The notes beneath the pieces are model-generated. The model was given only the letters and a program-made list of their open reading frames with translations. It ran no database searches and was not told the origin of the DNA. Of a DNA stretch of 34,084 nt, positions 8,365 through 20,442 are shown piece by piece. This DNA is from an uncultured Rhodospirillales bacterium (GTDB lineage: Bacteria > Pseudomonadota > Alphaproteobacteria > Acetobacterales > Acetobacteraceae), in assembly GCA_903845065.1 (NCBI GenBank), contig CAIMWH010000295.1, positions 1 to 34,084 of the forward strand, given 5' to 3'. Position 1 is the first letter of the stretch, and each line of letters starts with the position of its first letter. The position numbers were made by a program, and so were the translations under genes.

Positions 8365-9639
8365 TCACGCCAGGGCCGGCAGGCTCACACTGGCACAGGT
8401 GCCCGCGCCGGGCGTGCTGTGCAGGCCGAACACCCCGCCGTGCTGCTCCACCAGGGCCTTGACGATGGGCAGGCCAAGGCCGGTGCCTTCCCGCAGCGTC
8501 CGCGCGCGGGCCTCCTCGTCGGACGGCACCACCTGGCCGAACGGCGTCAACACCTTGGCGATATCCTCGGGCGCGATGCCGATGCCGGTATCGCGCACCC
8601 GCAACACCGCCGTGCCGCCCTCGCGCACCAGCGACAGGGTGACGGTGCCGCCGCGCAGGGTGAACTTGATGGCGTTGGTCAGCAGGTTGAGCAACACCTG
8701 CTTCAGCCGCAACGCATCGCCGCGCACCTGCACATCGGGCGCCGCGATCTCCTGCCGCAGCGTCACCCCGCGGTTGCGGGCGAACACCGCCACCATCCGC
8801 GCGGCTTCCTCCACCACGCGGCGCAGCCCGACGGCCACCGGGCGGAAGGCGCTTGCCCCGGCTTCGAGGCGGCTGTATTCGAGGATGTCATTGATCAGCG
8901 CCAGCATGTGGGTGCCGGACTCGTTGATATCGCGCGCGTAGCCCTGCCGCTGCTGGCTCTCGTCGGGATCGTTCAGGATCAGGTCGCTGAAGCCGATCAC
9001 CGCGTTCAGCGGGGAGCGCAACTCATGCGACAGGCTCGACAGGAAGTCGCTCTTGGCCTTGAACGCCGCCTCCAGGGTGCGGTGCGCCGCCTGCACCCGC
9101 TCGGCGATCTCCCGCTCCGCCCGCGCCTGCGCCACCACGGCGCGGCCGACGCGGCGCAGCTCCATTTCGTCCATCACCAGGTCCGCGAGATCGCGCAGCA
9201 CCTGCACCCGCGCGGGGTCGGGCGCCACGCGCGGCACCCGGTCGATCACGCACAGGGTGCCGAGGGTTTCGCCCGCGGGGGTGTTCAACTGGGCGCCGAG
9301 GTAGAAGCGGATCTCGGGCTCCCCGGTTACCAGCGGATTGTCGGCGAAGCGCGGATCGGCCGGCGCATCCAGCACCACCAGCGGTTCCTCCTGCACCAAA
9401 GCGTGGCTGCAGAACGCCCAGTCGCGCGGGGTTTCGCTGGCGGCCAGACCAACCCGCGCCTTGAACCACTGCCGGGAGCCGTCGATCAGCGAAATCAGCG
9501 CGATAGGCGCCTCCAGCAATGCCGCGGCGATCCGTGCCAGCCGGTCGAAGGCCTCCTCGTTCGGGGTATCAAGAATGGCGTAGTCGAGCAGGGCCTGGAG
9601 GCGGCGGGCTTCATTCAGCGGCAGGGCGGAGGCGGGCAT
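8365..9639 (-). CDS. Cytoplasmic GAF-domain sensor histidine kinase
   Basis: A 424-residue sensor kinase without membrane segments. Residues 12-160 form a GAF domain of the type seen in light and redox sensors. A short coiled linker (165-195) follows, then the HisKA phosphoacceptor motif SHELRSPLNAVIGFSD with His205. The HATPase part has an N box (QVLLNLLTNAIKF), a G1 box (RDTGIGIAPED) and a G2 box (GTGLGLPIVKAL). No receiver domain is fused and no response regulator is adjacent, so it is an orphan kinase here. The GAF segment has Cys77 and Cys130; a bilin or redox role is not supported by any specific motif. GGAGA lies nine bases before the ATG. Its promoter should lie in 9640-9778, where an inverted repeat sits. 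Confidence 0.88.
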   Translation of the reverse strand: MPASALPLNEARRLQALLDYAILDTPNEEAFDRLARIAAALLEAPIALISLIDGSRQWFKARVGLAASETPRDWAFCSHALVQEEPLVVLDAPADPRFADNPLVTGEPEIRFYLGAQLNTPAGETLGTLCVIDRVPRVAPDPARVQVLRDLADLVMDEMELRRVGRAVVAQARAEREIAERVQAAHRTLEAAFKAKSDFLSSLSHELRSPLNAVIGFSDLILNDPDESQQRQGYARDINESGTHMLALINDILEYSRLEAGASAFRPVAVGLRRVVEEAARMVAVFARNRGVTLRQEIAAPDVQVRGDALRLKQVLLNLLTNAIKFTLRGGTVTLSLVREGGTAVLRVRDTGIGIAPEDIAKVLTPFGQVVPSDEEARARTLREGTGLGLPIVKALVEQHGGVFGLHSTPGAGTCASVSLPALA

Positions 9640-9778: not shown

Positions 9779-10480
9779 TCAGAAATAGTCCCACACGTTG
9801 GCCGCCCGCGCGGCATCGGGCAGGCCGGCGAAGACGATCTGGCCGTTGTTCATGATCACGATGTCATCCGCGATGCGCATCGCCGCCGCCACGTTCTGCT
9901 CCACCAGGATGGCGCTCATGCCGTGCGCCGCGCACAGGGCGCGGATCTGGTCGAACAGGCGCTCCACCAGATTGGGCGCCAGGCCGATCGAGGGTTCGTC
10001 GAGCAGCAGGCAGCGCGGCGTGCCGAGGATGGCGAGGCCGAGCGCCAGCATCTGCTGCTGGCCACCGCTCATGCTGCCGGCCCGCACGCCGCGGCGTTCG
10101 TCCAACGCCGGGAACAGCTTGAACACGTCGGCCTCGCGGAACATCGGGGCGGGGCCGCTGACGTTGCGCGCCGCCACCACCGCCACGTTGTCGGCCACGC
10201 TGAGATCGGGGAACACCCCGCGCCCCTCGGGCAGCAGGCGGATGCCGAGGCCCACCCGGTCAGCCACCGCCATCCGCTCGATGCGCGCGCCGTCGAAGCT
10301 GATCTGGCCGGTGCAGGCCGGCAGAAGGCCGATGGCTGCCTTCAGGGTGGTGGTCTTGCCGGCCCCGTTATGGCCGAGCAGCGCCATGATGCGGCCGGGT
10401 TCGAGGGCGAGCGACAGCCCGGACAGCACCGTTTTGTTGCCGTAGCCAGCGGAGAGGCCGTCGATCCGCAACAGGCTCAT
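9779..10480 (-). CDS. livF: Branched-chain amino acid type ABC transporter ATPase LivF
   Basis: The second ATP-binding subunit of a HAAT-family importer, at the inner face of the cytoplasmic membrane. Walker A GHNGAGKTT (36-44), signature SGGQQQ, Walker B LLLDEPSIGLAP and the switch histidine in LVEQN context are typical of LivF; at 233 residues it has the usual length. It is last in the operon and its ATG overlaps the livG stop by four bases (ATGA), implying coupled translation. The transporter may carry leucine-type amino acids, other amino acids, amides or urea-like compounds; LivF does not decide this. Confidence 0.92.
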   Translation of the reverse strand: MSLLRIDGLSAGYGNKTVLSGLSLALEPGRIMALLGHNGAGKTTTLKAAIGLLPACTGQISFDGARIERMAVADRVGLGIRLLPEGRGVFPDLSVADNVAVVAARNVSGPAPMFREADVFKLFPALDERRGVRAGSMSGGQQQMLALGLAILGTPRCLLLDEPSIGLAPNLVERLFDQIRALCAAHGMSAILVEQNVAAAMRIADDIVIMNNGQIVFAGLPDAARAANVWDYF

Positions 10481-11241
10481 ATCACACCGCCAAAGTAGAT
10501 TTCCGCCAGCGCCGGATCGGTGATGATCTCTTGCGGGGAGCCTTGCGCCAGCACGTGGCCCTGGTGGAGGAACACCACCTCGTCGGCGATCTGCTGCACC
10601 ACGCGGGTGTTGTGCTCCACCACGAGCAGCGTTTTGCCGTCCGTCTGCAAGCCGCGCAGCACCTCCATCACCCGATCGAGCGCGGCGCCGCTGAGGCCCG
10701 AGGTGGGTTCGTCGAGCAGCAGCAGTTCGGCGCCGGTGGCGAGCAGGCGGGCGATGGAGAGCAGTTTCTGTTCGCCGTAGGAGAGGTTGCGCACCATGGT
10801 ATCGGCGCCATCGGCGAGGCCGACATGGGCCAGCACCTCGCGCGCCGCCGCGCGCCGTTGCGCCGTGGCGCGGGCGGCATGCAGCGGGCGGAAGATGGCG
10901 CCAAGCGGGGTCTCGCCGGCCTGGCCGGGCATGGCCACCAGCACGTTGTCCCGCGCCGTGAGGTCAGTGAACAGGCGCAGGTTCTGGAAGCTGCGGGCGA
11001 TGCCGGTGGCCACCACCTGCTGCGGGCTGAACCCATCGAGGCTGGTGCCCTGGAACGCCACATGGCCCTCGTCGGGCACCAGGAAGCCGGTGATGGCGTT
11101 GAAGATTGTGGTCTTGCCCGCTCCGTTGGGGCCGACGAGGCAGGTGATCAGACCCTTGGTGGTGGTGAAGCTGCAATCGTTGAGCGCCCGCAGCCCGCCG
11201 AAGCTCTTGGATACGCCGACAACCCTAAGATACGCGCTCAC
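10477..11241 (-). CDS. livG: Branched-chain amino acid type ABC transporter ATPase LivG
   Basis: The first ATP-binding subunit, 254 residues. Walker A GPNGAGKTT (37-45), the signature LSYGEQKLLSIARLL, Walker B LLLLDEPTSGLS and the H-loop VEHN are all present. The C-terminal extension with GSPQEIITDPALAEIYFGG is characteristic of LivG (BCA_ABC_TP_C). It overlaps livM by four bases upstream and livF by four bases downstream. With LivF it would form the heterodimeric motor for LivH-LivM. Confidence 0.92.
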   Translation of the reverse strand: MSAYLRVVGVSKSFGGLRALNDCSFTTTKGLITCLVGPNGAGKTTIFNAITGFLVPDEGHVAFQGTSLDGFSPQQVVATGIARSFQNLRLFTDLTARDNVLVAMPGQAGETPLGAIFRPLHAARATAQRRAAAREVLAHVGLADGADTMVRNLSYGEQKLLSIARLLATGAELLLLDEPTSGLSGAALDRVMEVLRGLQTDGKTLLVVEHNTRVVQQIADEVVFLHQGHVLAQGSPQEIITDPALAEIYFGGVI

Positions 11242-12101
11242 AGCTTTTCCCCCAGCAACCCCTGCGGGCGGAACAGCATGAAGACGATCAGCAGCACCCC
11301 GTAGATCAACTGCCGCGCCGCCGCCGCCACGCTGGTCGGCAGGTCGATCAGCGCCAGGGCCTGCGGCAAGGCGAGCAGCACGAAGGGGCCGATGATGGAG
11401 CCGGCCAGGGTGCGCGCGCCGCCCACCACCACCATCGCGAGCAGCAGGATGGAGGCATCGAGGTCAAACGATGATGGGTCGATGAAGCTCAGGAAGGTGG
11501 CATAGAGCCCGCCGGCCGTGCCCGCGAACGCGCCGGCGAGGGCGGCGGCGGACACCTTGGCGCGCAGCACGCTCTTGCCGAGGGCGGCCACCGCGAGTTC
11601 ATCCTCGCGGATGGCTCGCAGCAGGCGGCCGAACGGGGCGCGCATGATGAGCCAGAAGCCCAGGCACCCCAAAGCCATCCCGGCGGTGGCGAGCCCGAGG
11701 AACGCCCCGGGCTCGATCAGTTCCTGCCCGAAGATCAGTGGCGCCGGCACCCCGGGCAGCCCGGCAGCCCCCCCGGTGCCGGCGGTCCAATTGGTGAAGA
11801 TGGCGGTGGCCAGCAACTGGATGCCGAACGAGGTCACCACGAAGTAGTCGCCGGATACCCGCAGGCTTGGCAGCGTGACCAGGATGTTGAGCGCCACGCA
11901 CAATGCCGCCGCCGCCAGCAGGGCCGGCAGGAACGGCACCGCGGTGTTCATCAGCAGATAGGCCACCACATAGGCGCCCACCCCGAAAATCGCCGCCTGC
12001 GACACCGAGAAAATGCCGACGATGCCAACCAGAAGGTTGGTCGACAATCCGAGCAGCACATAGATCTCGGCGAGCGCGATGTAGGAATAAAAGAAGTCCA
12101 T
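11238..12101 (-). CDS. livM: Branched-chain amino acid type ABC transporter permease LivM
   Basis: An integral membrane subunit of 287 residues with about eight hydrophobic segments. It carries the LivM signatures LLGLSTNLLVGIVGIFSVSQAAIFGVGAY near the N-terminus, GLRVSGDYFVVTSFG-like SLRVSGDYFVVTS in the middle, and the cytoplasmic coupling loop FGRLLRAIREDELAVAALG. The C-terminus RPQGLLGEKL is also typical. It lies nine bases after livH and overlaps livG. It is shorter than E. coli LivM, which has an N-terminal extension, but normal for alphaproteobacteria. Confidence 0.92.
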   Translation of the reverse strand: MDFFYSYIALAEIYVLLGLSTNLLVGIVGIFSVSQAAIFGVGAYVVAYLLMNTAVPFLPALLAAAALCVALNILVTLPSLRVSGDYFVVTSFGIQLLATAIFTNWTAGTGGAAGLPGVPAPLIFGQELIEPGAFLGLATAGMALGCLGFWLIMRAPFGRLLRAIREDELAVAALGKSVLRAKVSAAALAGAFAGTAGGLYATFLSFIDPSSFDLDASILLLAMVVVGGARTLAGSIIGPFVLLALPQALALIDLPTSVAAAARQLIYGVLLIVFMLFRPQGLLGEKL

Positions 12102-12110
12102 GTCCTGCCC

Positions 12111-12968
12111 CTAGGTCGCGAACAGCCCGCGCGGGCGGAACAGCATGAAGATCACAAACACAAAGAAAGTCACCCCGATGCTCCACTCGCCCGGCATCAC
12201 CAGCAGCGACAGGTTCTGCAACACCGCGATGGCCACCGCGAGCACGAAGGCGCCTGATATACTGCCGACACCGCCGGCGATCATGGCGATCGTCGCGGTC
12301 AGCAGCATCGGCACGCCGCCGAACGGCTGCAACCCGAGATCGAGCGGCACCAGCGCGCCGGGCAGGCACACGATGGCGCTGCCCAGCGCGACCACCACCA
12401 CGTGCACATCGCGCGGGTTCAGCCGGGTGATTTCGGCGAGGAACGGGTTGGATGCCACCGCGCGCATCCGCTTGCCCAGCCCGGTGCGATGGGCGAACCA
12501 CATCACCCCCGCATAGGTGGCGAGCCCGATGCCCACGGTGACGATCTGCGTCATCGACAGCAGCACGCCGCCGATGGGCACCGTGCGGTCCGCCCAGGGC
12601 AGGGCGAAGCGCAGCACGTTGGAGGTATAGACCCCGGCGATGATGTTCTGCAGCACGGCGGAGGCACCGAGCGAGGCGATCAGCACCACCAGGTGCGTCG
12701 CGCCGCTGCGGGCCAGGCGCTCGTACAGCAGCTTCTGGATCAGCGCCCCCAGCAGCCCGCACGCCACGATGCCGATCAGCAGCGCCAGCGGTTCGGGCGC
12801 GCCGTGCCGCAGGGCGGACCATGTGAGGTAGCCGCCCATGCTGTAGACCCCGGCATGGGCGACGTGAAAGATCTTGGTGGTGGCGAAAATCAGCGAGAAG
12901 CTTACCGCCACCATGCCCAGCGCGCAGCCCGAGACGAGGCCGTTGACCAGCAGGTGAAGCCACAGCAT
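12111..12968 (-). CDS. livH: Branched-chain amino acid type ABC transporter permease LivH
   Basis: An integral membrane subunit of 285 residues. LVNGLVSGCALGMVAVSFSL at the start, HVAHAGVYSMGGYLTW next (the LivH HxAHG-type segment), the coupling loop GLGKRMRAVASNPFLAEI, and the C-terminal RPRGLF mark LivH. It is separated from the binding-protein gene by 22 bases and from livM by nine. The usual N-H-A-x-G segment reads HVAHAGVY, a small variation near the translocation pathway. Confidence 0.92.
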   Translation of the reverse strand: MLWLHLLVNGLVSGCALGMVAVSFSLIFATTKIFHVAHAGVYSMGGYLTWSALRHGAPEPLALLIGIVACGLLGALIQKLLYERLARSGATHLVVLIASLGASAVLQNIIAGVYTSNVLRFALPWADRTVPIGGVLLSMTQIVTVGIGLATYAGVMWFAHRTGLGKRMRAVASNPFLAEITRLNPRDVHVVVVALGSAIVCLPGALVPLDLGLQPFGGVPMLLTATIAMIAGGVGSISGAFVLAVAIAVLQNLSLLVMPGEWSIGVTFFVFVIFMLFRPRGLFAT

Positions 12969-12990
12969 CGGGATGCGTTCCGGTCGGGCG

Positions 12991-14106
12991 TTATTGCTTC
13001 GGCGGGATCACCTTGATGATGGCGTCCGTCTTGGCCTGCATGCGGTTGATGTTCACCTGGGTGTCGGCAGTGTTGTTGTTGAACACCACGCGGGTCAGCC
13101 CGTCGAAGGTCTTGATGGCGAACAGCGCGGCGCGGAGGTTCTCGCCGGTCAGCGGCTTGCCCTCCTTCAGCAGGCGCTCGACGCACGCCAGCACGATGTT
13201 GGTGGCGTTGTAGTACTGCTTGGGGAAGAAATCGAACTCGGTGCCGTAGGTCTTCTTGAATTCGGCGGCCAGGCTGTCCGGCGCGTTGATCAGCACCTGA
13301 CTGTGGATCCAGCCCTCGGCATTGGGGTTGGCCACCACTTCGGGGTCGGAGAAGAAGGTATTGCCCACCACGGTGAACTTGGCGTCGATCTGGCGGATCT
13401 GGTCGGCCAGCGGGCTTACCCCGGCGGTGAGGATGACGAACAGCATGTCCGGCTGCGCGGCCGCCAGTTTCAGCAGCACCGGGCGGTAGTTGGTGTCGCC
13501 GAAGGCGATGGGTTCCTGTGCCACGATCTTGCCGCCGGCGGCGGTGTAGGAGGCGGCGAAGTCATCGCGGCCGGAAATCCCCGCCGCGTCGTTCTCGAAC
13601 AGGATGGCGGCGGTTTTCTTGCCCGCGTCATGCAGCACGTAGTTGGCCAGCACTTCCAGTTCGCCGGCCAGCACCGGGATGGTGTTGACGAGGTAGGGCG
13701 AGGCCTTGGCGAGCGGATCGGCCTGGGCGCCGCCGTTCACCAGCAACACCTTCTTGCGCGTCGCCAGTGGCGCCATCGCGAGGGTAGGGCCGGAGAAGCC
13801 GGTGATCACGGCGGGCACGCCCTGGAGGTCCACCAGCTTGTTGAACGACAGCACGGACTGGTCGGGCTTGGCCTGGTTGTCCTCGAACAGCATTTCGATC
13901 TGCCGCCCGGCGATGCCGCCCTTGGCGTTGGCGTGCAGCAGCGCGAACTGGATGCCGCGCTGTTCCTGGCTGCCCACCACGGCCGCCGGCCCGGTCAGCG
14001 GCAGCACCGCGCCGAGGCGAATGGGTTGCGCCTGTGCGGCGGCGCCCAGCGCAACGCACGCCCCCGCCAGAGCCCCGGCCAGCCAAAAACGACGATTGCG
14101 CGCCAT
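12991..14106 (-). CDS. Branched-chain amino acid type ABC transporter binding protein
   Basis: The periplasmic substrate-binding protein of the operon, 371 residues, with a signal peptide ending near AAAQAQ and a mature start PIRLGAVLPLTGPAAVVG that is typical of the Peripla_BP_6 family. Conserved blocks are GGIAGRQIEMLFEDNQAKPDQ and AVITGFSGPTLAMAPLA. AGGGAG lies eight bases before the ATG. A TTGACT (complement of 14191-14196) could be a -35 box for the operon, but the -10 candidate is poor. Ligand identity is open: family members bind Leu/Ile/Val, other amino acids, short amides, aromatic acids or urea. Its position first in the operon fits the usual higher expression of the binding protein. 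Confidence 0.9.
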   Translation of the reverse strand: MARNRRFWLAGALAGACVALGAAAQAQPIRLGAVLPLTGPAAVVGSQEQRGIQFALLHANAKGGIAGRQIEMLFEDNQAKPDQSVLSFNKLVDLQGVPAVITGFSGPTLAMAPLATRKKVLLVNGGAQADPLAKASPYLVNTIPVLAGELEVLANYVLHDAGKKTAAILFENDAAGISGRDDFAASYTAAGGKIVAQEPIAFGDTNYRPVLLKLAAAQPDMLFVILTAGVSPLADQIRQIDAKFTVVGNTFFSDPEVVANPNAEGWIHSQVLINAPDSLAAEFKKTYGTEFDFFPKQYYNATNIVLACVERLLKEGKPLTGENLRAALFAIKTFDGLTRVVFNNNTADTQVNINRMQAKTDAIIKVIPPKQ

Positions 14107-14203
14107 CGATGAATCTCCCTTGCAGGGCCGCGCCTAATGAACGCCTGGGCAGCCTCTTCGAGGGGGCAGGGTTGAACGCGCGGCGCGCCGAGTCAACCGC
14201 TAG

Positions 14204-14935
14204 CTAGACCTTGAATTCCTCCATCCGCTCCACCGCCGAGCGCAGCGCGTCCGACCAGGCTTTGGACAGGCGGCGGAAGTATTCGTTGTCCTTGTCCAAC
14301 CGATGGAACTGCTGCGCCACCAGGCTTTCCCGCTCATAGACCAGCAGGTCGATCGGCATGCCGACGGAGAGGTTGGAGCGCATGGTGGAATCGAACGACA
14401 GCAGGATCAGCTTGGCCGCCTCGCCCAGGCTCATGTCCGAATGGGTGACGCGGTCGAGGATGGGCTTGCCGTACTTGTGCTCGCCGATTTGCAGATAGGG
14501 GGTGTCGACGGTCGATTCGATGAAGTTGCCCTCGGCGTAGATCTGGAACAGCCGCGGCGGCTCGCGCCCGATCTGCCCGCCCAGGATGAAGGAGGCCGAG
14601 AAGCCGGCGCTGGCCTCCAGCGCCTCGCCGTCCACCGCGCGGATTTCGCGCACCGCGGCGCCCACCAGGCGGGCGGCGCGGTACATCGAGGCGACCGTCA
14701 TCAGGGTGGGGGTTTCGGGGTCCTGCTCGGCCTCGATCTGCTCGTTGAGCAGGCTCACCACGGACTGCGTCACCGCGAGATTGCCGGCGGTCAGCAACAC
14801 CAGCACGCGGTCTCCCGGGCGGTTCCAGTGATGCAGCTTGCGGAACTGGGAGATGTTGTCGACGCCCGCGTTGGTGCGGGTGTCAGCAGCAAACACCATG
14901 CCGCTCTCGAGATTGAGGGCTACGGCGTAGGTCAT
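14204..14935 (-). CDS. Anbu (proteasome beta-subunit homologue) peptidase
   Basis: An N-terminal-nucleophile hydrolase of the Anbu family, ancestral or sister to the 20S proteasome and HslV. The ATG at 14935 has GGGAGG seven bases upstream and gives MTYAVAL, so removal of Met exposes Thr as the nucleophile. Asp18 in AADTRTNAG and Lys33 in SQFRKLHHW occupy the proteasomal Asp17 and Lys33-type positions. A longer reading frame upstream (to 15193) has unrelated low-quality sequence and is rejected. The 243-residue length is normal. Anbu proteins form open helical rings, and their peptidase activity and substrates are poorly established. It is last in a four-gene operon whose other members could make or trim an unusual peptide, suggesting Anbu degrades or matures that product. 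Confidence 0.92.
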   Translation of the reverse strand: MTYAVALNLESGMVFAADTRTNAGVDNISQFRKLHHWNRPGDRVLVLLTAGNLAVTQSVVSLLNEQIEAEQDPETPTLMTVASMYRAARLVGAAVREIRAVDGEALEASAGFSASFILGGQIGREPPRLFQIYAEGNFIESTVDTPYLQIGEHKYGKPILDRVTHSDMSLGEAAKLILLSFDSTMRSNLSVGMPIDLLVYERESLVAQQFHRLDKDNEYFRRLSKAWSDALRSAVERMEEFKV

Positions 14936-14987
14936 CGGCAAGCCTCCCGATCGACAGGTGAGTGTCGACAGCGTTTCGCGCGCAACC

Positions 14988-15797
14988 CTATTGCTGCGCG
15001 CTTTGCCGCTGCACCCGCACCTGCACTTCGAGCCGTTCCTCGCCGCCGCCACGGCGGGAGCCCCGGATGGGGGCGGCGTAGTAGGCATCCAGCGCCGCGG
15101 CCATGCGAACGTAGCGGTCGGTCGGACATACATTGTTCGCGACGTCGAAGCCAATCCATCCGAGTCCCTCAACGAACGCCTCGGCCCAGGCATGGTGGGC
15201 CGGTTCGTCGGAGATGCCGTCGGTCAGCAGATAGCCGGTCACGTAGCGGGCCGGCACCTCGGCGGCGCGGCAGGCGGAGATGAAGATGTGGGCGTGGTCC
15301 TGGCAGACGCCGTGGCCGGCTTTCAGGGCCTCGGCGGCGGTGGTTTGGGAATCGGTGACGCCGGTTTCGTATTCCACCTGGCCACGGATGTTACCCATCA
15401 GGTCATGCAGCCAGGGCAGGGTCTCGCCGGCGGCGATCGGCTTGAGCAGGTCAAGGATGCCAGGCCCCGGCATCGTCAGGTCCGTCCGGCGCAGGAACAC
15501 CCGCAGCGGCACGGTTTCCACCAGCCCGCGCACCACGCCGTGGCGGTCCTCGATGTCCACCACGCCGCTGGCGATGATGTCGACATCCTGGTGCGGCCCC
15601 TCCACCGTCATGAGGTGCATCACATTGCCGAAGCCGTCCCGTGTGGGAGTGATCACGCCGTCCGGCCGGCAGGTGACCTGCCAGTTCACCACCTGCTGCC
15701 CCTCGAACGCCGCCGGCGTCAGGCGCAGGCTCTGCACGCTGTAGGTGGCGATCGAACTGTAGCGATAGCTCGTCGTATGCTCGATCACGATGCGCAT
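14988..15797 (-). CDS. Transglutaminase-like cysteine protease with N-terminal beta domain
   Basis: A 269-residue cytoplasmic protein. The N-terminal transglutaminase-associated beta domain runs from residue 1 (MRIVIEHTTSYRYSS) to about 100. The papain-like core has Cys165 in GHGVCQDHAH, His202 in HHAWAEAF and Asp218 in GWIGFDVAN, a complete catalytic triad. Such proteins are usually peptidases or amidases rather than cross-linkers in bacteria. The ATG at 15797 lies 11 bases after the alpha-E stop, with AGG upstream; the longer open frame toward 16157 is the antisense-like shadow of that gene. The C-terminal tail is basic and low in complexity (SRRGGGEERLEVQVRV). In the operon it could cleave or hydrolyse the amide bond formed by the ATP-grasp ligase. 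Confidence 0.9.
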   Translation of the reverse strand: MRIVIEHTTSYRYSSIATYSVQSLRLTPAAFEGQQVVNWQVTCRPDGVITPTRDGFGNVMHLMTVEGPHQDVDIIASGVVDIEDRHGVVRGLVETVPLRVFLRRTDLTMPGPGILDLLKPIAAGETLPWLHDLMGNIRGQVEYETGVTDSQTTAAEALKAGHGVCQDHAHIFISACRAAEVPARYVTGYLLTDGISDEPAHHAWAEAFVEGLGWIGFDVANNVCPTDRYVRMAAALDAYYAAPIRGSRRGGGEERLEVQVRVQRQSAQQ

Positions 15798-15808
15798 GGG
15801 ACGACCTA

Positions 15809-16750
15809 TCAGCCGTTGAAGTGGTAGGCGGCGGCAATGTCGCTCGCCAGCAGGTTGTTGCCGGTGATCACGCCGCCGAGGAAATCGTGCAGCCCGGTTT
15901 GCAGGATGCCGTTCATGTCGTTCGCCACCAGCCGGCCGAGGGTTTCCTCGGCGCGGGCGTGGCATGGCGTCGGCCCGCCGTAGGAGTGTTCGAGCCCAGC
16001 GAGGGCCGCCGAAATCTCGGCGTAGCAGGAGCGCAGCGAGCGCGGCATCTGCGGGTTGAGGATGAGGAAGTCGGCGATGTGCCAGGGCTTGAACGCATCG
16101 CGATACACCCAGCGGAAGCTGCGATGGGCGGAAACCGAGCGCAGGATGGCGGCCCACTGGGCGCTGTCCACGCCGCCGCCGACCAGCTCGTTCTCGGGCA
16201 GCAGCACGTAGTACTTGGTATCGAGGATGCGCGCGGTGTTGTCGGCCCGTTCGAGGAAGGTGCCGAGCTGGGTGAAATAGAAGGTGTCGTTGCGCAGGAT
16301 GGTGTTGAGCAGGGCGCCGCGGAACAGGGCGGAGCGGTCGCGGATCCAGTCAAACAGGTCAGGCAGCGCGTTGGCCTCGATGCGGGCGGCGGCGATGGTG
16401 GGGAATTCGATCCACGCCGCGTTCAGCGCCTCCCACATGTCCCGCGTGATGGCGGTGCGCTGCGCCCGCGCGTTGCGCCGCGCGGTGGACAGGCAGGAAT
16501 AGACCGAGGAGGGGTTGTCGCGGTCGAGCAGCAGGTAGTTGCAGACCTGGCTCGTCGCGATGGTTTCGTGGCGGTTGAAATAGCCGGGCTCGCAGCCGGC
16601 GCTGCGCAGGGTGGAGCGCCATTCGGCCTCGCCCCCTTCGTGCGGCAGCAGCGTCAGCCGGTGGCCGACTTCGAGCAGGCGGGCGATGTTCTCGGCGCGC
16701 TCGATATAGCGGGCCATCCAGAACAGGTCATTGGCGGTGCGTCCGAGCAT
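15809..16750 (-). CDS. Alpha-E domain-containing protein
   Basis: A 313-residue all-helical protein of the alpha-E family, named for conserved glutamates. It starts with the hallmark MLGRTANDLFWMARYIERAEN, and has a second pair of conserved acidic and arginine residues in GTFLERADNTARILDTKYY. FRWVYRDAFKPWHIADFLILN is another conserved block. Biochemical function is unknown. The family nearly always neighbours, or is fused to, the circularly permuted ATP-grasp ligase and the transglutaminase-like protein, as here (four bases after the ATP-grasp stop, 11 before the next start). A role as partner or carrier-binding subunit of the ligase is inference. Confidence 0.92.
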   Translation of the reverse strand: MLGRTANDLFWMARYIERAENIARLLEVGHRLTLLPHEGGEAEWRSTLRSAGCEPGYFNRHETIATSQVCNYLLLDRDNPSSVYSCLSTARRNARAQRTAITRDMWEALNAAWIEFPTIAAARIEANALPDLFDWIRDRSALFRGALLNTILRNDTFYFTQLGTFLERADNTARILDTKYYVLLPENELVGGGVDSAQWAAILRSVSAHRSFRWVYRDAFKPWHIADFLILNPQMPRSLRSCYAEISAALAGLEHSYGGPTPCHARAEETLGRLVANDMNGILQTGLHDFLGGVITGNNLLASDIAAAYHFNG

Positions 16751-16754
16751 GGCG

Positions 16755-18170
16755 TTATTCTTCCAACACCCAGGTGTCCTTGGTCCCGCCGCCCTGGCTG
16801 GAATTCACCACCAGGGAGCCTTTTTTCAACGCCACCCGGGTGAGCCCGCCCGGGGTGAGGCGCATCTTGTCGCCGAGCAGCACGAACGGCCGCAGATCGA
16901 CATGGCGGGGCGACAGCCCCTCGTCGGTCAGCACCGGGCAGGTGGAGAGCGCCAGGGTGGGCTGGGCGATGTAGCGCTCGGGCGTGGCCTTCACCTTGCC
17001 GCGGAACGCCTCCACCTGGGCGCGGGTGGAGGTGGGGCCGACCAGCATGCCGTAGCCGCCGGAGCCGTGGGTTTCCTTCACCACCAGGTCCGCCATGTTC
17101 TCCAGCACGTAGGCGAGATCATCGGGGTTGCGGCAGTTGTAGGTGTGCACGTTCTTCAGGATGGGCGGGCGGCCGGTGTAGAACTCGATGATCTCCGGCA
17201 CGTAGGAATAGATCGACTTGTCGTCCGCGATGCCGGCGCCCGGCGCGTTCACGATGGTGACGCGCCCGGCGCGATACAGGTCGAACAGGCCGGGCACGCC
17301 CAGCACCGAGTCGGGGTTGAACACCAGGGGATCGAGGTAGTCGTCATCGATGCGGCGGTAGACCACGTCCACCTGTTGCAACCCCTGGGTGGTCTTCATC
17401 ATCAGCCGCCCGCCGGTGACCACGAGGTCCTGCCCTTCGACCAGTTCCACGCCCATGCGGTCGGCGAGGAAGGAGTGTTCGAAGTAGGCGCTGTTGTGCA
17501 GCCCGGGGGTCAGCACCACGATGGTGGGCTCGCGGTCGAGGTTGGTGGGGGCCACGCTTTCCAGCGTCGCCCGCAGATCTTCCGGGTAGCGCTCCACCGG
17601 GGCGACGCGGTTGAGCCCGAACAGGTCCGGGCACATGTGCATCATCGTCTCGCGGTTTTCGAGCATGTACGACACGCCGGACGGGGTGCGGGTGTTGTCC
17701 TCCAGCACGAAGAAATCGTTCTCCGAGGTGCGGACGATGTCGATGCCCATGATGTGCGAGTAGATGCCGCGCGGCGGTTCGGCGCCCATCATCTCGGGCA
17801 CGAAGGCGGCGTTCTGGATCACCAGGTCCGCCGGCACGCGGCCGGCGCGCAGGATCTCCTGGCGGTGGTAGATGTCATACATGAAGGCGTTGAGCGCCCG
17901 CACCCGCTGCTCGATCCCGGCGGCCAGACGGCGCCATTCGGCGGCGCTGATCACGCGGGGGATGATATCGAACGGGATCAGCCGCTCGGCGGCCTCGTGC
18001 GCGCCATACACGGCGAAGGTGATGCCGGTGCGGCGGAACATCGATTCCGCGTGTGCCGACTTGCGGCGCAATTCGGCGCCGGGCTGGCCCTCAACCCAGG
18101 CTCCCACGGCACGGTAGGGTTCGCGCGGGCGTTTGCCCTTGCCCGTCCCTCGCATTTCGTCAAACGCCAC
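16755..18170 (-). CDS. Circularly permuted ATP-grasp type 2 amidoligase
   Basis: A predicted carboxylate-amine ligase that would use ATP to form a peptide-like bond. The circularly permuted ATP-grasp fold shows VLEDNTRTPSGVSYMLENR, NAPGAGIADDKSIYSYVPE and KETHGSGGYGMLVGP, the last being the nucleotide-binding loop. It ends with the usual SQGGGTKDTWVLEE. I chose GTG at 18170 because it yields the family's common start (M)AFDEM and has AGGA about 11 bases upstream; TTG at 18191 or ATG at 18155 are alternatives. Length is then 471, as expected. It is the first gene of the operon, divergent from parE. Comparative studies of amidoligases grouped this enzyme with alpha-E, transglutaminase and Anbu genes as a putative peptide-synthesis and processing system. 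Substrates are unknown. Confidence 0.9.
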   Translation of the reverse strand: MAFDEMRGTGKGKRPREPYRAVGAWVEGQPGAELRRKSAHAESMFRRTGITFAVYGAHEAAERLIPFDIIPRVISAAEWRRLAAGIEQRVRALNAFMYDIYHRQEILRAGRVPADLVIQNAAFVPEMMGAEPPRGIYSHIMGIDIVRTSENDFFVLEDNTRTPSGVSYMLENRETMMHMCPDLFGLNRVAPVERYPEDLRATLESVAPTNLDREPTIVVLTPGLHNSAYFEHSFLADRMGVELVEGQDLVVTGGRLMMKTTQGLQQVDVVYRRIDDDYLDPLVFNPDSVLGVPGLFDLYRAGRVTIVNAPGAGIADDKSIYSYVPEIIEFYTGRPPILKNVHTYNCRNPDDLAYVLENMADLVVKETHGSGGYGMLVGPTSTRAQVEAFRGKVKATPERYIAQPTLALSTCPVLTDEGLSPRHVDLRPFVLLGDKMRLTPGGLTRVALKKGSLVVNSSQGGGTKDTWVLEE

Positions 18171-18420
18171 GATCGTCGTTATCCTGCACAATGCTGCTCT
18201 GCGCTATTGTAGAGGCAAGAACCGGGCCAGCGATAGTGTGCGCGTGCATTCGCAGCCAAATCCCGATTCCGCCCCGTACCGGATGATCCACGCTGCGTCG
18301 GAAATGGACCCTTTGCCGCGAAAACAGGCATATCCGCCCGCCGCATGGCCGCCCGCGCGCGGCTCGCTTGAACCATCACGACGGGGGCGGCTAGAGTGGG
18401 TCCCGATACGGGAACACAGC
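18171..18420. other. Divergent promoter region between the Anbu operon and parE
   Basis: These 250 bases must hold the promoters of both divergent units. I see no strong -35/-10 pair. The open frame of parE continues upstream to 18133, but that extension has no conserved features and the conserved protein begins at 18421. No RNA gene or repeat was recognised. Confidence 0.4.
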
Positions 18421-20442
18421 ATGAACGATCTCTTCGGCTCCACCCCCAAGGGCGGCAAGGCCGTCGCGCGCCAGCCGGCCCCGCGTGACGCCGCCCCGCG
18501 TGATGACGACGCCTACTCCGCCAAGGACATCGAGGTCCTGGAGGGGCTCGAGCCCGTACGCCGTCGCCCCGGCATGTATATCGGCGGCACCGACGAGAAC
18601 GCCCTGCACCATCTGGCCGCCGAAATCCTCGACAACGCGATGGACGAAGCGGTGGCCGGGCATGCGAGCTTCATCGAGGTCAGCCTGGCCACCGGCAATG
18701 TGCTGAGCGTGCGCGATAATGGGCGCGGCATCCCGGTGGACCCGCACCCCAAGTTCAAGCACCTCAGCGCGCTCGAGGTGATCCTCACCACGCTGCATTC
18801 GGGCGGCAAGTTCGGCGGCAAGGTTTATGAGACGTCGGGCGGCCTGCACGGGGTCGGCTCGTCGGTGGTGAACGCGCTGTCCGAGGTTTTCGACGTGGAG
18901 GTGGCGCGCGACCGGGTGCTGTGGAAGCAGAGCTACGCGCGCGGCAAGCCGCTCGGGCCATTGGTGAATGCGGGGCCGACGCAGAACCGGCGCGGCACCA
19001 TGATCGGCTTCAAGCCCGATCCGCAGATATTCGGGGACCTGCAATTTCTCCCCGCCCGGCTCTACCGGCTGTGCCGCTCCAAGGCCTACCTGTTCAAGGG
19101 CGTGAAAATCCGCTGGTCCTGCGATCCGGCGCTGCTCAAGGGCGGCGACATTCCGGCCGAGGCGGAACTCCATTTCCCGGGCGGGCTGCGTGACAGCCTG
19201 GAGGACGATATCGGCACCGCGGTGCGCGTGGCCCCGCTATGGGCCGGCGAGGCCGATCTTCCCGCGGCGCCCGATGGCCGTCCCGCCGGGCGGGTCGAGT
19301 GGGCGGTGGCGTGGCTCGAAGAGTCCGATGCCTTCCTCCACTCCTACTGCAACACGGTGCCCACCGCGCAGGGCGGCACCCACGAGGCCGGGTTCCGCAA
19401 CGCCCTGCTCAAGGGCCTGCGGGCCTGGGGCGAACATCGCGCCAACCGCCGCGCGGCGCAGATCACCGCCGAGGACATCGCCGCCAACCTGGTGGCGAAA
19501 CTCTCCGCCTTCATCCGGGACCCGCAGTTCCAGGGCCAGACCAAGGAAAAGCTGACCTCCCCCGAGGCCACCCGCTTCGTGGAAACCGCCATCCGCGACC
19601 GCTTCGACCATTTCCTCGGCGGTGACCCGACCCAGGCCGACAACCTGCTGTCCTTCGTTATCGAGCGTGCCGAGGACCGTATCCGCCGCAAGGAACTCAA
19701 GGACACCCCGCGCAAATCGGCCACCAGGCGGCTGCGCCTGCCCGGCAAGCTGGCGGATTGTTCGGTGGAGGATGCCAGCCGCACCGAACTCTTCCTCGTC
19801 GAGGGTGACAGCGCCGGCGGCTCGGCCAAGCAGGCGCGCGATCGTGCCACCCAGGCCATCCTTCCCCTGCGCGGTAAGATCCTCAACGTCGCCTCCGCCT
19901 CGGCCGAAAAGCTGCGGCAGAACCAGGAACTCAAGGACCTCATCGAGGCCCTCGGCTGCGGCGCCGGCGAACGGTTCGACCGCGCCCGCCTGCGCTACGG
20001 CCGCGTCATCATCATGACGGACGCCGATGTGGACGGTGCCCATATCGCCTCGCTGCTGATGACGTTCTTCTATCGCGAGATGCCGGACCTGATCCGCCAG
20101 GGCCATCTCTACCTCGCCCAGCCGCCGCTCTACCGGCTCACCCAGGGCGCCAAGTCGATCTACGCGATGGATGACGCCGACCGCGAGCGCAAAACCAAGC
20201 TGTTCAAGGCCGGCAGCAAGATCGAGGTCAGCCGCTTCAAGGGGCTCGGCGAAATGCCGCCCTCCGCCTTGAAGGAAACCACCATGGACCCCAGCAAGCG
20301 CACCCTGCTGCGGGTGATGGCGATCCGCGAGGAACGCGCCGAGACCAACGAACTCGTCGAAAGCCTGATGGGCCGCCGGCCGGAACTGCGCTTCGCCTTC
20401 ATCCAGGAACACGCCAGCGACGTCATCGACGTCGATATCTAG
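18421..20442 (+). CDS. parE: DNA topoisomerase IV subunit B
   Basis: The ATPase subunit of topoisomerase IV, which with ParC decatenates chromosomes. GHKL ATPase motifs are EILDNAMDEAV, DNGRGIPVD and GGLHGVGSSVVNALS; QTKEKL is the switch lysine loop near residue 375. The TOPRIM domain has EGDSAGGSA (about 461-469) and DADVDGAH (about 534-541). The start RRPGMYIGGTDE and the C-terminal LMGRRPELRFAFIQEHA match ParE rather than GyrB. At 673 residues the length fits alphaproteobacterial ParE. The ATG at 18421 has a weak GGGAA upstream. The residues before about 38 are a variable, charged N-terminus. parC is not in the window. A small unknown gene follows after 11 bases. Confidence 0.93.
   Translation: MNDLFGSTPKGGKAVARQPAPRDAAPRDDDAYSAKDIEVLEGLEPVRRRPGMYIGGTDENALHHLAAEILDNAMDEAVAGHASFIEVSLATGNVLSVRDNGRGIPVDPHPKFKHLSALEVILTTLHSGGKFGGKVYETSGGLHGVGSSVVNALSEVFDVEVARDRVLWKQSYARGKPLGPLVNAGPTQNRRGTMIGFKPDPQIFGDLQFLPARLYRLCRSKAYLFKGVKIRWSCDPALLKGGDIPAEAELHFPGGLRDSLEDDIGTAVRVAPLWAGEADLPAAPDGRPAGRVEWAVAWLEESDAFLHSYCNTVPTAQGGTHEAGFRNALLKGLRAWGEHRANRRAAQITAEDIAANLVAKLSAFIRDPQFQGQTKEKLTSPEATRFVETAIRDRFDHFLGGDPTQADNLLSFVIERAEDRIRRKELKDTPRKSATRRLRLPGKLADCSVEDASRTELFLVEGDSAGGSAKQARDRATQAILPLRGKILNVASASAEKLRQNQELKDLIEALGCGAGERFDRARLRYGRVIIMTDADVDGAHIASLLMTFFYREMPDLIRQGHLYLAQPPLYRLTQGAKSIYAMDDADRERKTKLFKAGSKIEVSRFKGLGEMPPSALKETTMDPSKRTLLRVMAIREERAETNELVESLMGRRPELRFAFIQEHASDVIDVDI

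What the first reader, a model, noticed from the sequence alone, without database searches (positions are those of the whole stretch)
14204..18170. Complete Anbu operon: ATP-grasp ligase, alpha-E, transglutaminase-like protease and proteasome homologue
Seen: four tightly spaced genes (gaps 4, 11 and 52 bases) in the order ligase, alpha-E, transglutaminase, Anbu, with catalytic residues intact in the last two (Cys165/His202/Asp218; Thr after Met, Asp18, Lys33). Known: comparative genomics groups these families as a putative peptide-synthesis or tagging and processing system, and Anbu is a proteasome relative of unclear activity. Inference: the ligase makes a peptide-like bond with alpha-E as partner, the transglutaminase reverses or trims it, and Anbu degrades tagged or oligomeric product. 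No regulator or transporter is included, so the substrate is likely cytoplasmic. This is the best candidate for an incompletely described system here.
Basis: partly seen in the sequence, partly recalled or inferred. Interest (0 to 1): 0.75.

Follow-up and report, generated by a model that had tools for sequence, protein, structure and literature searches.

The report
Known Anbu ligase operon, nitrogen-linked
This is an ordinary, intact copy of a known but still unexplained bacterial gene set in which an amide-bond-making enzyme and its helical partner travel with two separate amide-cutting enzymes, one of them a proteasome relative, probably switched on when nitrogen runs short.

Summary
Four minus-strand genes (ATP-grasp ligase, alpha-E, transglutaminase-like protease, Anbu) lie where stated, with gaps of 4, 11 and 52 bases and the named catalytic residues. 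The four-gene Anbu operon has been in print since 2008-2009 and Anbu structures are solved, so this is a new member of a known kind. The ligase groups with Hyphomicrobiaceae, so this genus (family taken as Acetobacteraceae) probably gained the operon horizontally.

Found here:
(2) Alpha-E contains two homologous halves, is confidently predicted, and has no significant fold match in the PDB.
(3) A sigma-54-type element precedes the ligase in the window, in 13 of 21 family operons (window included) and in 21 of 53 Anbu operons across the phylum, against 11 of 493 control regions. This fits published nitrogen-limitation induction; one rpoN-mutant data set disagrees.

Most likely: a glutathione-synthetase-like ligase with alpha-E makes an amide conjugate under nitrogen limitation, and two optional hydrolases process it. 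The substrate is unknown. The downstream ABC importer was not found in any of 80 related loci.

The parts
16755..18170 (-). Circularly permuted ATP-grasp ligase (471 aa, GTG start)
   Evidence: Pfam CP_ATPgrasp_2 3.5e-163; PDB 3n6x 1.3e-187; Foldseek of the AF2 model: 3n6x, then glutathione and glutathionylspermidine synthetases
15809..16750 (-). Alpha-E, helical partner protein (313 aa)
   Evidence: Pfam Alpha-E 3.8e-93; AF2 mean pLDDT 90.5; no Foldseek match at E<=0.001 in PDB or BFVD
16466..16708 (-). Alpha-E first internal repeat (residues 15-95), motif ERAENxAR
   Evidence: hhalign of N half against C half: probability 97.9%, E=6.2e-13; halves of the other three proteins 0.1-0.7%
15998..16258 (-). 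Alpha-E second internal repeat (residues 165-251), motif ERADNxAR
   Evidence: same comparison; E167, R168, D170, R174 in 65 of 65 rows
14988..15797 (-). Transglutaminase-like cysteine protease/amidase (269 aa), Cys165-His202-Asp218
   Evidence: Pfam Bact_transglu_N and Transglut_core; triad counts; PDB 3isr 3.9e-16
14204..14935 (-). Anbu, proteasome-type Ntn hydrolase (243 aa), Thr2/Asp18/Lys33
   Evidence: PDB 5nyj/5nyf about 1e-105; Pfam Proteasome 5.5e-9; residues in 58 of 58 rows
18214..18229 (-). Sigma-54-type -24/-12 promoter element TGGCCCGGTTCTTGCC, 44 bases before the ligase GTG (putative)
   Evidence: recurs upstream of the ligase in relatives against natural controls

Best explanation
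An intact Anbu operon. Its core is a two-protein amide synthetase: the circularly permuted ATP-grasp ligase activates a carboxylate as acyl phosphate and joins it to an amine, and the duplicated helical protein alpha-E is its obligate partner (substrate carrier or second half of the active site). The transglutaminase-like cysteine enzyme and the threonine hydrolase Anbu are two alternative amide hydrolases that trim, release or recycle the product, in the way that glutathionylspermidine synthetase is paired with a cysteine amidase. In this lineage the operon is probably transcribed from a sigma-54 promoter, so it would be made when nitrogen is limiting. Shown here: gene content, residues, conservation, modularity, duplication, promoter-element enrichment. 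Published for other species: ATP turnover by the ligase and nitrogen/NtrC control. Inferred: the amide product, the hydrolase roles, the partner role of alpha-E, sigma-54 use in this genus. Unknown: the substrate.
For: Family and structure matches. The ligase model is closest to 3n6x, then homoglutathione/glutathione synthetases (E 8e-14 and weaker), 'Ligase Cp1B' (9cjn) and glutathionylspermidine synthetase (E 9e-9). Alpha-E follows the ligase in 80 of 80 loci and in 20 of 20 family loci, whereas transglutaminase and Anbu vary independently. Sigma-54-like element (GG-N10-GC fixed, at least 6 of 8 other consensus positions, within 180 bp): own family 13 of 21 with the window (0.58 expected from shuffles), phylum Anbu operons 21 of 53 (1.47 expected), in 10 of 18 families; natural control regions 11 of 493; Fisher p 1.8e-14 and 5.3e-16. 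At 7 or more: 9 of 21 and 15 of 53 against 1 of 493. The genome has rpoN and NtrC-like pieces at the first base of contig C87 and on C185. Published: PP_2685 and PP_2688 up log2 4.44 and 3.99 on nitrate against ammonium (PMC8050072, passages); B. cenocepacia ligase, alpha-E and transglutaminase genes down 8- to 9-fold in an ntrC mutant (PMC5491218, passages); predicted RpoN site TGGCCCGGCCCTTGC before a Bradyrhizobium CP_ATPgrasp gene (PMC13207237, passages); ligase releases phosphate from ATP (PMC6376114, passages).
Against: No product or substrate is known. In Yersinia no specific interaction of Anbu with the other operon proteins was detected, and Anbu did not stimulate the ligase (PMC6376114, passages); in Pseudomonas, co-expression gave no different Anbu form (PMC5666114, section 14). 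Fuchs et al. judge a peptide-synthesis role for Anbu less likely and favour protein degradation. In P. putida the three genes before Anbu rose 11-15-fold on nitrogen limitation but Anbu only 1.12-fold, and induction persisted (14-20-fold) in the rpoN mutant (PMC7801951, Table 2), against strict sigma-54 control there. The element is infrequent in the first 80 loci (10 of 80, 2.48 expected; at 7 or more 2 of 80, 0.35 expected) and was not seen in 8 of 18 families sampled. TGGC-N7-TTGC alone occurs 4 times in the window against 2.27 expected, so the single match proves nothing without the relatives. NtrC-type dyads are not enriched upstream of the elements (9 of 44 against 7.0; exact dyads 2 against 0.13, both in one genus) and the best in the window has 2 mismatches. 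A TACAAT hexamer lies just downstream of the element, so a sigma-70 promoter is not excluded.
Confidence: 0.5

Rival explanations
1. Protein tagging and degradation: the ligase (with alpha-E) attaches a residue or peptide to proteins, the transglutaminase-like enzyme removes or remodels it, and Anbu degrades tagged proteins, giving amino-acid recycling in nitrogen starvation, by analogy with the Pup-proteasome system (analogy recalled, not from a call).
For: Anbu is a proteasome relative with Thr/Asp/Lys in 58 of 58 rows; Fuchs et al. argue for protein degradation from inhibitor binding and the processive ring (PMC5666114, section 14); nitrogen-limitation induction in print.
Against: 53 of 172 alpha-E genomes had no Anbu match, and 2 of 121 Anbu genomes had no match to alpha-E or the ligase; no AAA+ unfoldase among the six downstream neighbours scanned; no peptidase activity of purified Anbu on the substrates tested (PMC6376114); in P. 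putida Anbu was not co-induced with the other three in one study, though it was in another.
Confidence: 0.25
2. Two unrelated functions side by side: a ligase/alpha-E(/transglutaminase) amide pathway and a free-standing Anbu peptidase, merely co-transcribed and moved together.
For: Anbu stands at least about 6 kb from any of the other three genes in 11 loci that I picked because it looked detached (L083-L088, L090-L093, L099), in some beside genes that I recognise by eye as mutS or metG (not scanned); Anbu without transglutaminase and the reverse both occur in the family.
Against: Anbu and alpha-E co-occur far above chance (119 of 299 both, 2 Anbu only; Fisher p 4e-38, not corrected for kinship) and Anbu lies within 315 bases after the transglutaminase match in 57 of 80 loci.
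Confidence: 0.2
3. One reading: ligase makes a bond with alpha-E, transglutaminase trims it, Anbu degrades the product, all four required.
For: All four genes tightly packed here with the catalytic residues present.
Against: Each hydrolase gene is missing from many operons and the transglutaminase Cys is lost in three loci; genes elsewhere in those genomes were not excluded for every locus.
Confidence: 0.05

Closest known systems
Anbu operon of Pseudomonas, Yersinia, Hyphomicrobium and others (Valas and Bourne 2008 and Iyer et al. 2009 as cited in PMC5666114 and PMC6376114)
   Same: Same four genes in the same order, same catalytic residues; ligase 73-75% and Anbu 66-70% identical to the Hyphomicrobium copies L004-L007; Anbu matches PDB 5nyj/5nyf
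   Different: Nothing essential; the host belongs to a family taken as Acetobacteraceae, yet its ligase groups with Hyphomicrobiaceae and not with other members of its family
P. putida PP_2685-PP_2688 and B. cenocepacia I35_5080-83 nitrogen-regulated clusters (PMC8050072, PMC7801951, PMC5491218; passages and one table)
   Same: Ligase/alpha-E/transglutaminase genes of the same kinds and nitrogen control in print; a sigma-54-like element in relatives of the window
   Different: In B. cenocepacia the fourth gene is a large transglutaminase-domain protein; no NtrC dyad was found upstream in the window
Glutathionylspermidine synthetase/amidase and glutathione synthetases
   Same: ATP-grasp ligase fold (Foldseek); pairing of a synthetase with a cysteine hydrolase (the amidase partner as named in the PDB titles)
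   Different: Hydrolases of other families here, no counterpart of alpha-E, 10-15% identity in the aligned structures

Membership tests
Anbu operon | Genes in order ATP-grasp, alpha-E, transglutaminase-like, Anbu, same strand | tested here: met
   same order in 57 of 80 related loci
Anbu operon | Anbu N-terminal Thr with Asp17/Lys32-33 equivalents | tested here: met
   58 of 58 rows; published residues Thr1, Asp17, Lys32(33) (PMC6376114)
Anbu operon | Anbu closer to solved Anbu than to HslV or 20S chains | tested here: met
   5 PDB hits at E<=0.001: three named Anbu or designed Anbu, 5lox (called Anbu in PMC8665760) and 5nyw, named 'Peptidase' (recalled as an Anbu); no HslV or 20S chain at that threshold
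Anbu operon | Open-ring (lock-washer) assembly | not testable with these tools
   needs purified protein
Circularly permuted ATP-grasp (CP_ATPgrasp_2) | Family match and ATP-grasp fold | tested here: met
Circularly permuted ATP-grasp (CP_ATPgrasp_2) | ATP-dependent amide ligation | not testable with these tools
   for the Anbu-operon ligase I saw only ATP-to-phosphate turnover in print (PMC6376114)
Alpha-E (PF04168) | Helical domain with ER motif | tested here: met
   motif present twice
Glutathionylspermidine synthetase/amidase | ATP-grasp synthetase plus cysteine amidase in one system | tested here: inconclusive
   fold similarity only; the hydrolase here is of the transglutaminase family
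AAA+-dependent proteasome-like protease | Neighbouring unfoldase gene | tested here: not met
   none among six downstream neighbours, and parE is next upstream; the rest of the genome was not searched
Sigma-54-controlled operon | -24/-12 element at promoter distance, conserved in relatives | tested here: met
   13 of 21 in the family; spacing kept in 3 of 3 genus members, although L109 has GC for the -24 GG
NtrC regulon | NtrC dyads upstream | tested here: not met
   best in the window has 2 mismatches; 9 of 44 against 7.0 expected in relatives

The most novel reading that the evidence does not exclude
Alpha-E is a tandemly duplicated helical protein of a fold not yet among solved structures, and together with the circularly permuted ATP-grasp it forms an obligate two-component amide synthetase for an unknown nitrogen-starvation metabolite. 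Transglutaminase and Anbu are two interchangeable hydrolases for it, so that the proteasome's bacterial cousin would be a dedicated amidase of a small product and not a general protease.
Probability: 0.3. Interest if true: 0.65.

Novelty: new member of a known kind. Interest (0 to 1): 0.35.

Why it matters
Anbu has been proposed as an ancestral form of the proteasome, yet what it and its operon do is unknown. Showing that the constant unit is the ligase with alpha-E, that the two hydrolases are optional, and that the promoter element is repeatedly of the sigma-54 type narrows the question to a testable one: which amide appears in nitrogen-starved cells only when ligase and alpha-E are present, and which hydrolase removes it.

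Tried and rejected
Conserved transporter partner: rejected; no match to the downstream ABC binding protein or first permease in any of 80 loci, and none to the binding protein in the genus loci L109 and L111; one weak binding-protein match elsewhere in L116. Conserved flanking genes: outside the four genes the widest clusters held 13 loci (it looks like a shadow frame over alpha-E) and 11 of 81 (my simple ORF caller picks shadow frames in GC-rich DNA). Sigma-54 control of alphaproteobacterial operons in general: not borne out by the first 81 upstream regions. NtrC sites: not enriched. Known fold for alpha-E: no significant match in PDB or BFVD. The ParE query was out of frame by my error, so its blanks mean nothing.

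Rows dropped: alignments held 64 of 80 alpha-E loci (A1), all 57 Anbu loci (A2), 45 of 80 transglutaminase loci (A3; L020 had a stop in the matched stretch, L041 and others left out by me) and 35 of 80 ligase loci (A4; L037 had a stop, others left out by me), each plus the window. In one search one of 54 phylum regions (L172) fell out for too short an upstream stretch. The 54 were picked, at most two a genus, from 71 genomes whose entered places put Anbu within 4.5 kb of alpha-E; I entered only part of the places listed, and one search's list was itself cut. Family loci L103-L122 are 10 of the 11 best-scoring ligase genomes (all but the window's own) and 10 of the next 23; of the remaining 63 family genomes with a match only L098 was fetched. 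Controls come from a mechanical ORF caller and include genes inside operons, which lowers their promoter rate; the shuffle control does not have that bias. Kinship was not corrected for in the Fisher tests. In the tree three unlabelled rows (L015, L041, L042) are themselves of or next to the window's family, so the forced count of 7 label changes is inflated.
Full report
OBSERVATION. Pfam assigns all four. The ligase matches PDB 3n6x at 1e-187, Anbu matches 5nyj/5nyf at about 1e-105, the transglutaminase matches 3isr, and alpha-E has no solved relative by sequence (one hit at E 0.38). No NCBIfam family matched the first three proteins at E<=0.001, and Anbu matched only an archaeal proteasome model far below its cut-off. 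The stated catalytic residues are present and conserved.

PRIOR ART. The operon is not new. Papers seen in passages describe it and cite its discovery in 2008-2009: PMC5666114 (passages and section 14), PMC6376114 (passages), PMC3597751 (passages); PMC8665760 (passages) covers Anbu alone. The 2009 paper itself (PMC3268129) is not held. Nitrogen control is also in print: PMC8050072 (passages), PMC5491218 (passages), PMC13207237 (a predicted RpoN site; passages), PMC7801951 (passages and tables), and a sigma-54 survey naming COG3484, the proteasome-type protease (PMC12316311, one passage). A marine metagenome study groups the same domains with urea-metabolism domains (PMC3597751). In the searches I found no published substrate. 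Hints of phenotypes exist: a single transposon insertion in a DUF403 (alpha-E) gene was enriched in a Klebsiella gut screen (PMC6414703, one passage), a COG2308 regulatory region came up in a Sinorhizobium competitiveness association (PMC8407117, passages), and an antinematode metagenomic clone is listed with these four gene names (PMC7764037, passages).

RELATIVES. A scan with the ligase gave 80 loci, the best of at least 591. All 80 keep ligase, alpha-E and transglutaminase in order; 57 have Anbu next. In 299 genomes sampled from the phylum, alpha-E matched in 172, Anbu in 121, both in 119. The two Anbu-only genomes, one genus, have no ligase match either, with a model that matched 97 of 120 genomes of the window's family. 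In 11 of the loci that I fetched because Anbu looked detached or unusual, it stands with none of the other three genes in the stretch. In the window's family only 11 of 120 genomes score in the window's ligase class (above 860 bits), including all three genus members searched. Two family loci are identical or nearly so in the ligase to records named Rhodospirillales (L015) and Acetobacteraceae (L041), so the family is taken to be Acetobacteraceae. In the tree the three genus members group with five Hyphomicrobiaceae rows (support 100/99), apart from the other family rows; seven label changes are forced, a count inflated by three unlabelled family-type rows. Horizontal gain is the simplest reading.

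MODULES. In 20 family loci ligase and alpha-E are together in all 20; 3 have both hydrolases, 8 only the transglutaminase, 5 only Anbu, 3 neither, 1 ends too early (profiles from A1-A4, stretches of about 4-9.5 kb, so genes elsewhere in the genome are not excluded). Three Devosia-type loci (L012, L017, L037) have replaced the transglutaminase Cys and have no Anbu beside it; but most Anbu-less loci aligned keep the Cys. The constant unit is ligase plus alpha-E.

ALPHA-E. Its two halves are homologous: residues 15-95 and 165-251 align with 97.9% probability, E=6.2e-13, while the halves of the other three proteins give 0.1-0.7%. Each repeat carries ERAxNxAR. AF2 is confident (mean pLDDT 90.5, pTM 0.90) and Foldseek finds nothing at E<=0.001 in PDB (best 0.72) or BFVD (best 0.69). 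Whether the duplication has been reported I cannot say; it was not in the passages read. The ligase model is weaker (pLDDT 77.9) but recovers 3n6x and then the glutathione-synthetase, glutathionylspermidine-synthetase and trypanothione-synthetase group, and 'Ligase Cp1B'; by its name I take that to be the Cp1B of a paper on E-64 biosynthesis (PMC12568646, search listing only).

PROMOTER. A TGGCCCGGTTCTTGCC element ends 44 bases before the ligase start. By itself it is not significant (TGGC-N7-TTGC: 4 in the window, 2.27 expected). In relatives, elements with at least 6 of 8 variable consensus positions within 180 bp occur in 13 of 21 family operons including the window (0.58 expected), 21 of 53 phylum Anbu operons (1.47 expected; at most two genomes a genus; 10 of 18 families) and 10 of 80 of the first loci (2.48 expected). 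Natural control regions give 11 of 493. In the family it is found with and without Anbu, so it goes with the ligase unit. Spacing is kept in the three genus members, with GC for GG in L109. The genome holds rpoN. Its best NtrC-model matches include a C-terminal piece at the first base of contig C87 and an N-terminal piece on C185, with full-length relatives elsewhere; none passes the NtrC cut-off alone. Against: no enrichment of NtrC dyads, 8 of 18 families without the element, and persistent induction in a P. putida rpoN mutant (the urt genes behave likewise there).

NEIGHBOURHOOD. parE runs divergently (18418-20442, TIGR01055). Downstream on the same strand are an ABC importer of the branched-chain amino acid/urea class (14106-9779) and a histidine kinase (9639-8365). 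The importer's binding protein and first permease were not found in the 80 loci. The simple scan found no sigma-70 promoter in 14000-18450.

VERDICT. Real, intact, known kind. The most likely mechanism is an amide synthetase (ligase with alpha-E) under nitrogen control with two optional hydrolases; the substrate and the role of Anbu remain open.

Noticed in passing
window 9779-14106 (-): ABC importer of the branched-chain amino acid/urea class (binding protein, two permeases, two ATPases) starts 97 bases after Anbu on the same strand; its binding protein and first permease were not found in 80 related loci.
   Followed up: partly
window 8365-9639 (-): GAF-domain histidine kinase directly after the importer on the same strand.
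   Followed up: no
L012:8378-9175, L017:8367-9119, L037:8376-9131: Transglutaminase-like proteins of Devosia-type loci have lost the catalytic Cys but keep His and Asp; no Anbu follows in these operons.
   Followed up: partly
L083:6035-6775 (-), L084:7258-7977 (+): Anbu in two genomes of one genus with no alpha-E and no ligase match; in L083 it lies beside what look by eye like pterin/folate genes, and Thr2, Asp18 and Lys33 are kept.
   Followed up: partly
lower-scoring matches; L102:7864-10614: A second, diverged ligase type in long frames (mostly about 760-950 aa) in many family genomes; in L102 one frame matches both ligase and alpha-E profiles, so a natural fusion there.
   Followed up: partly
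L113, L115, L118, L119, L122: Operons with ligase, alpha-E and Anbu but no transglutaminase in the stretch fetched.
   Followed up: partly
L030: A contig labelled Acidobacteriota (Candidatus Sulfopaludibacter) carries an alphaproteobacterial-type operon: transfer or a misbinned contig.
   Followed up: no
literature: PMC7764037 Table 2 (passages): A metagenomic clone (jj117) with the same four gene names is listed for antinematode activity, citing a 2019 thesis that I could not read.
   Followed up: no
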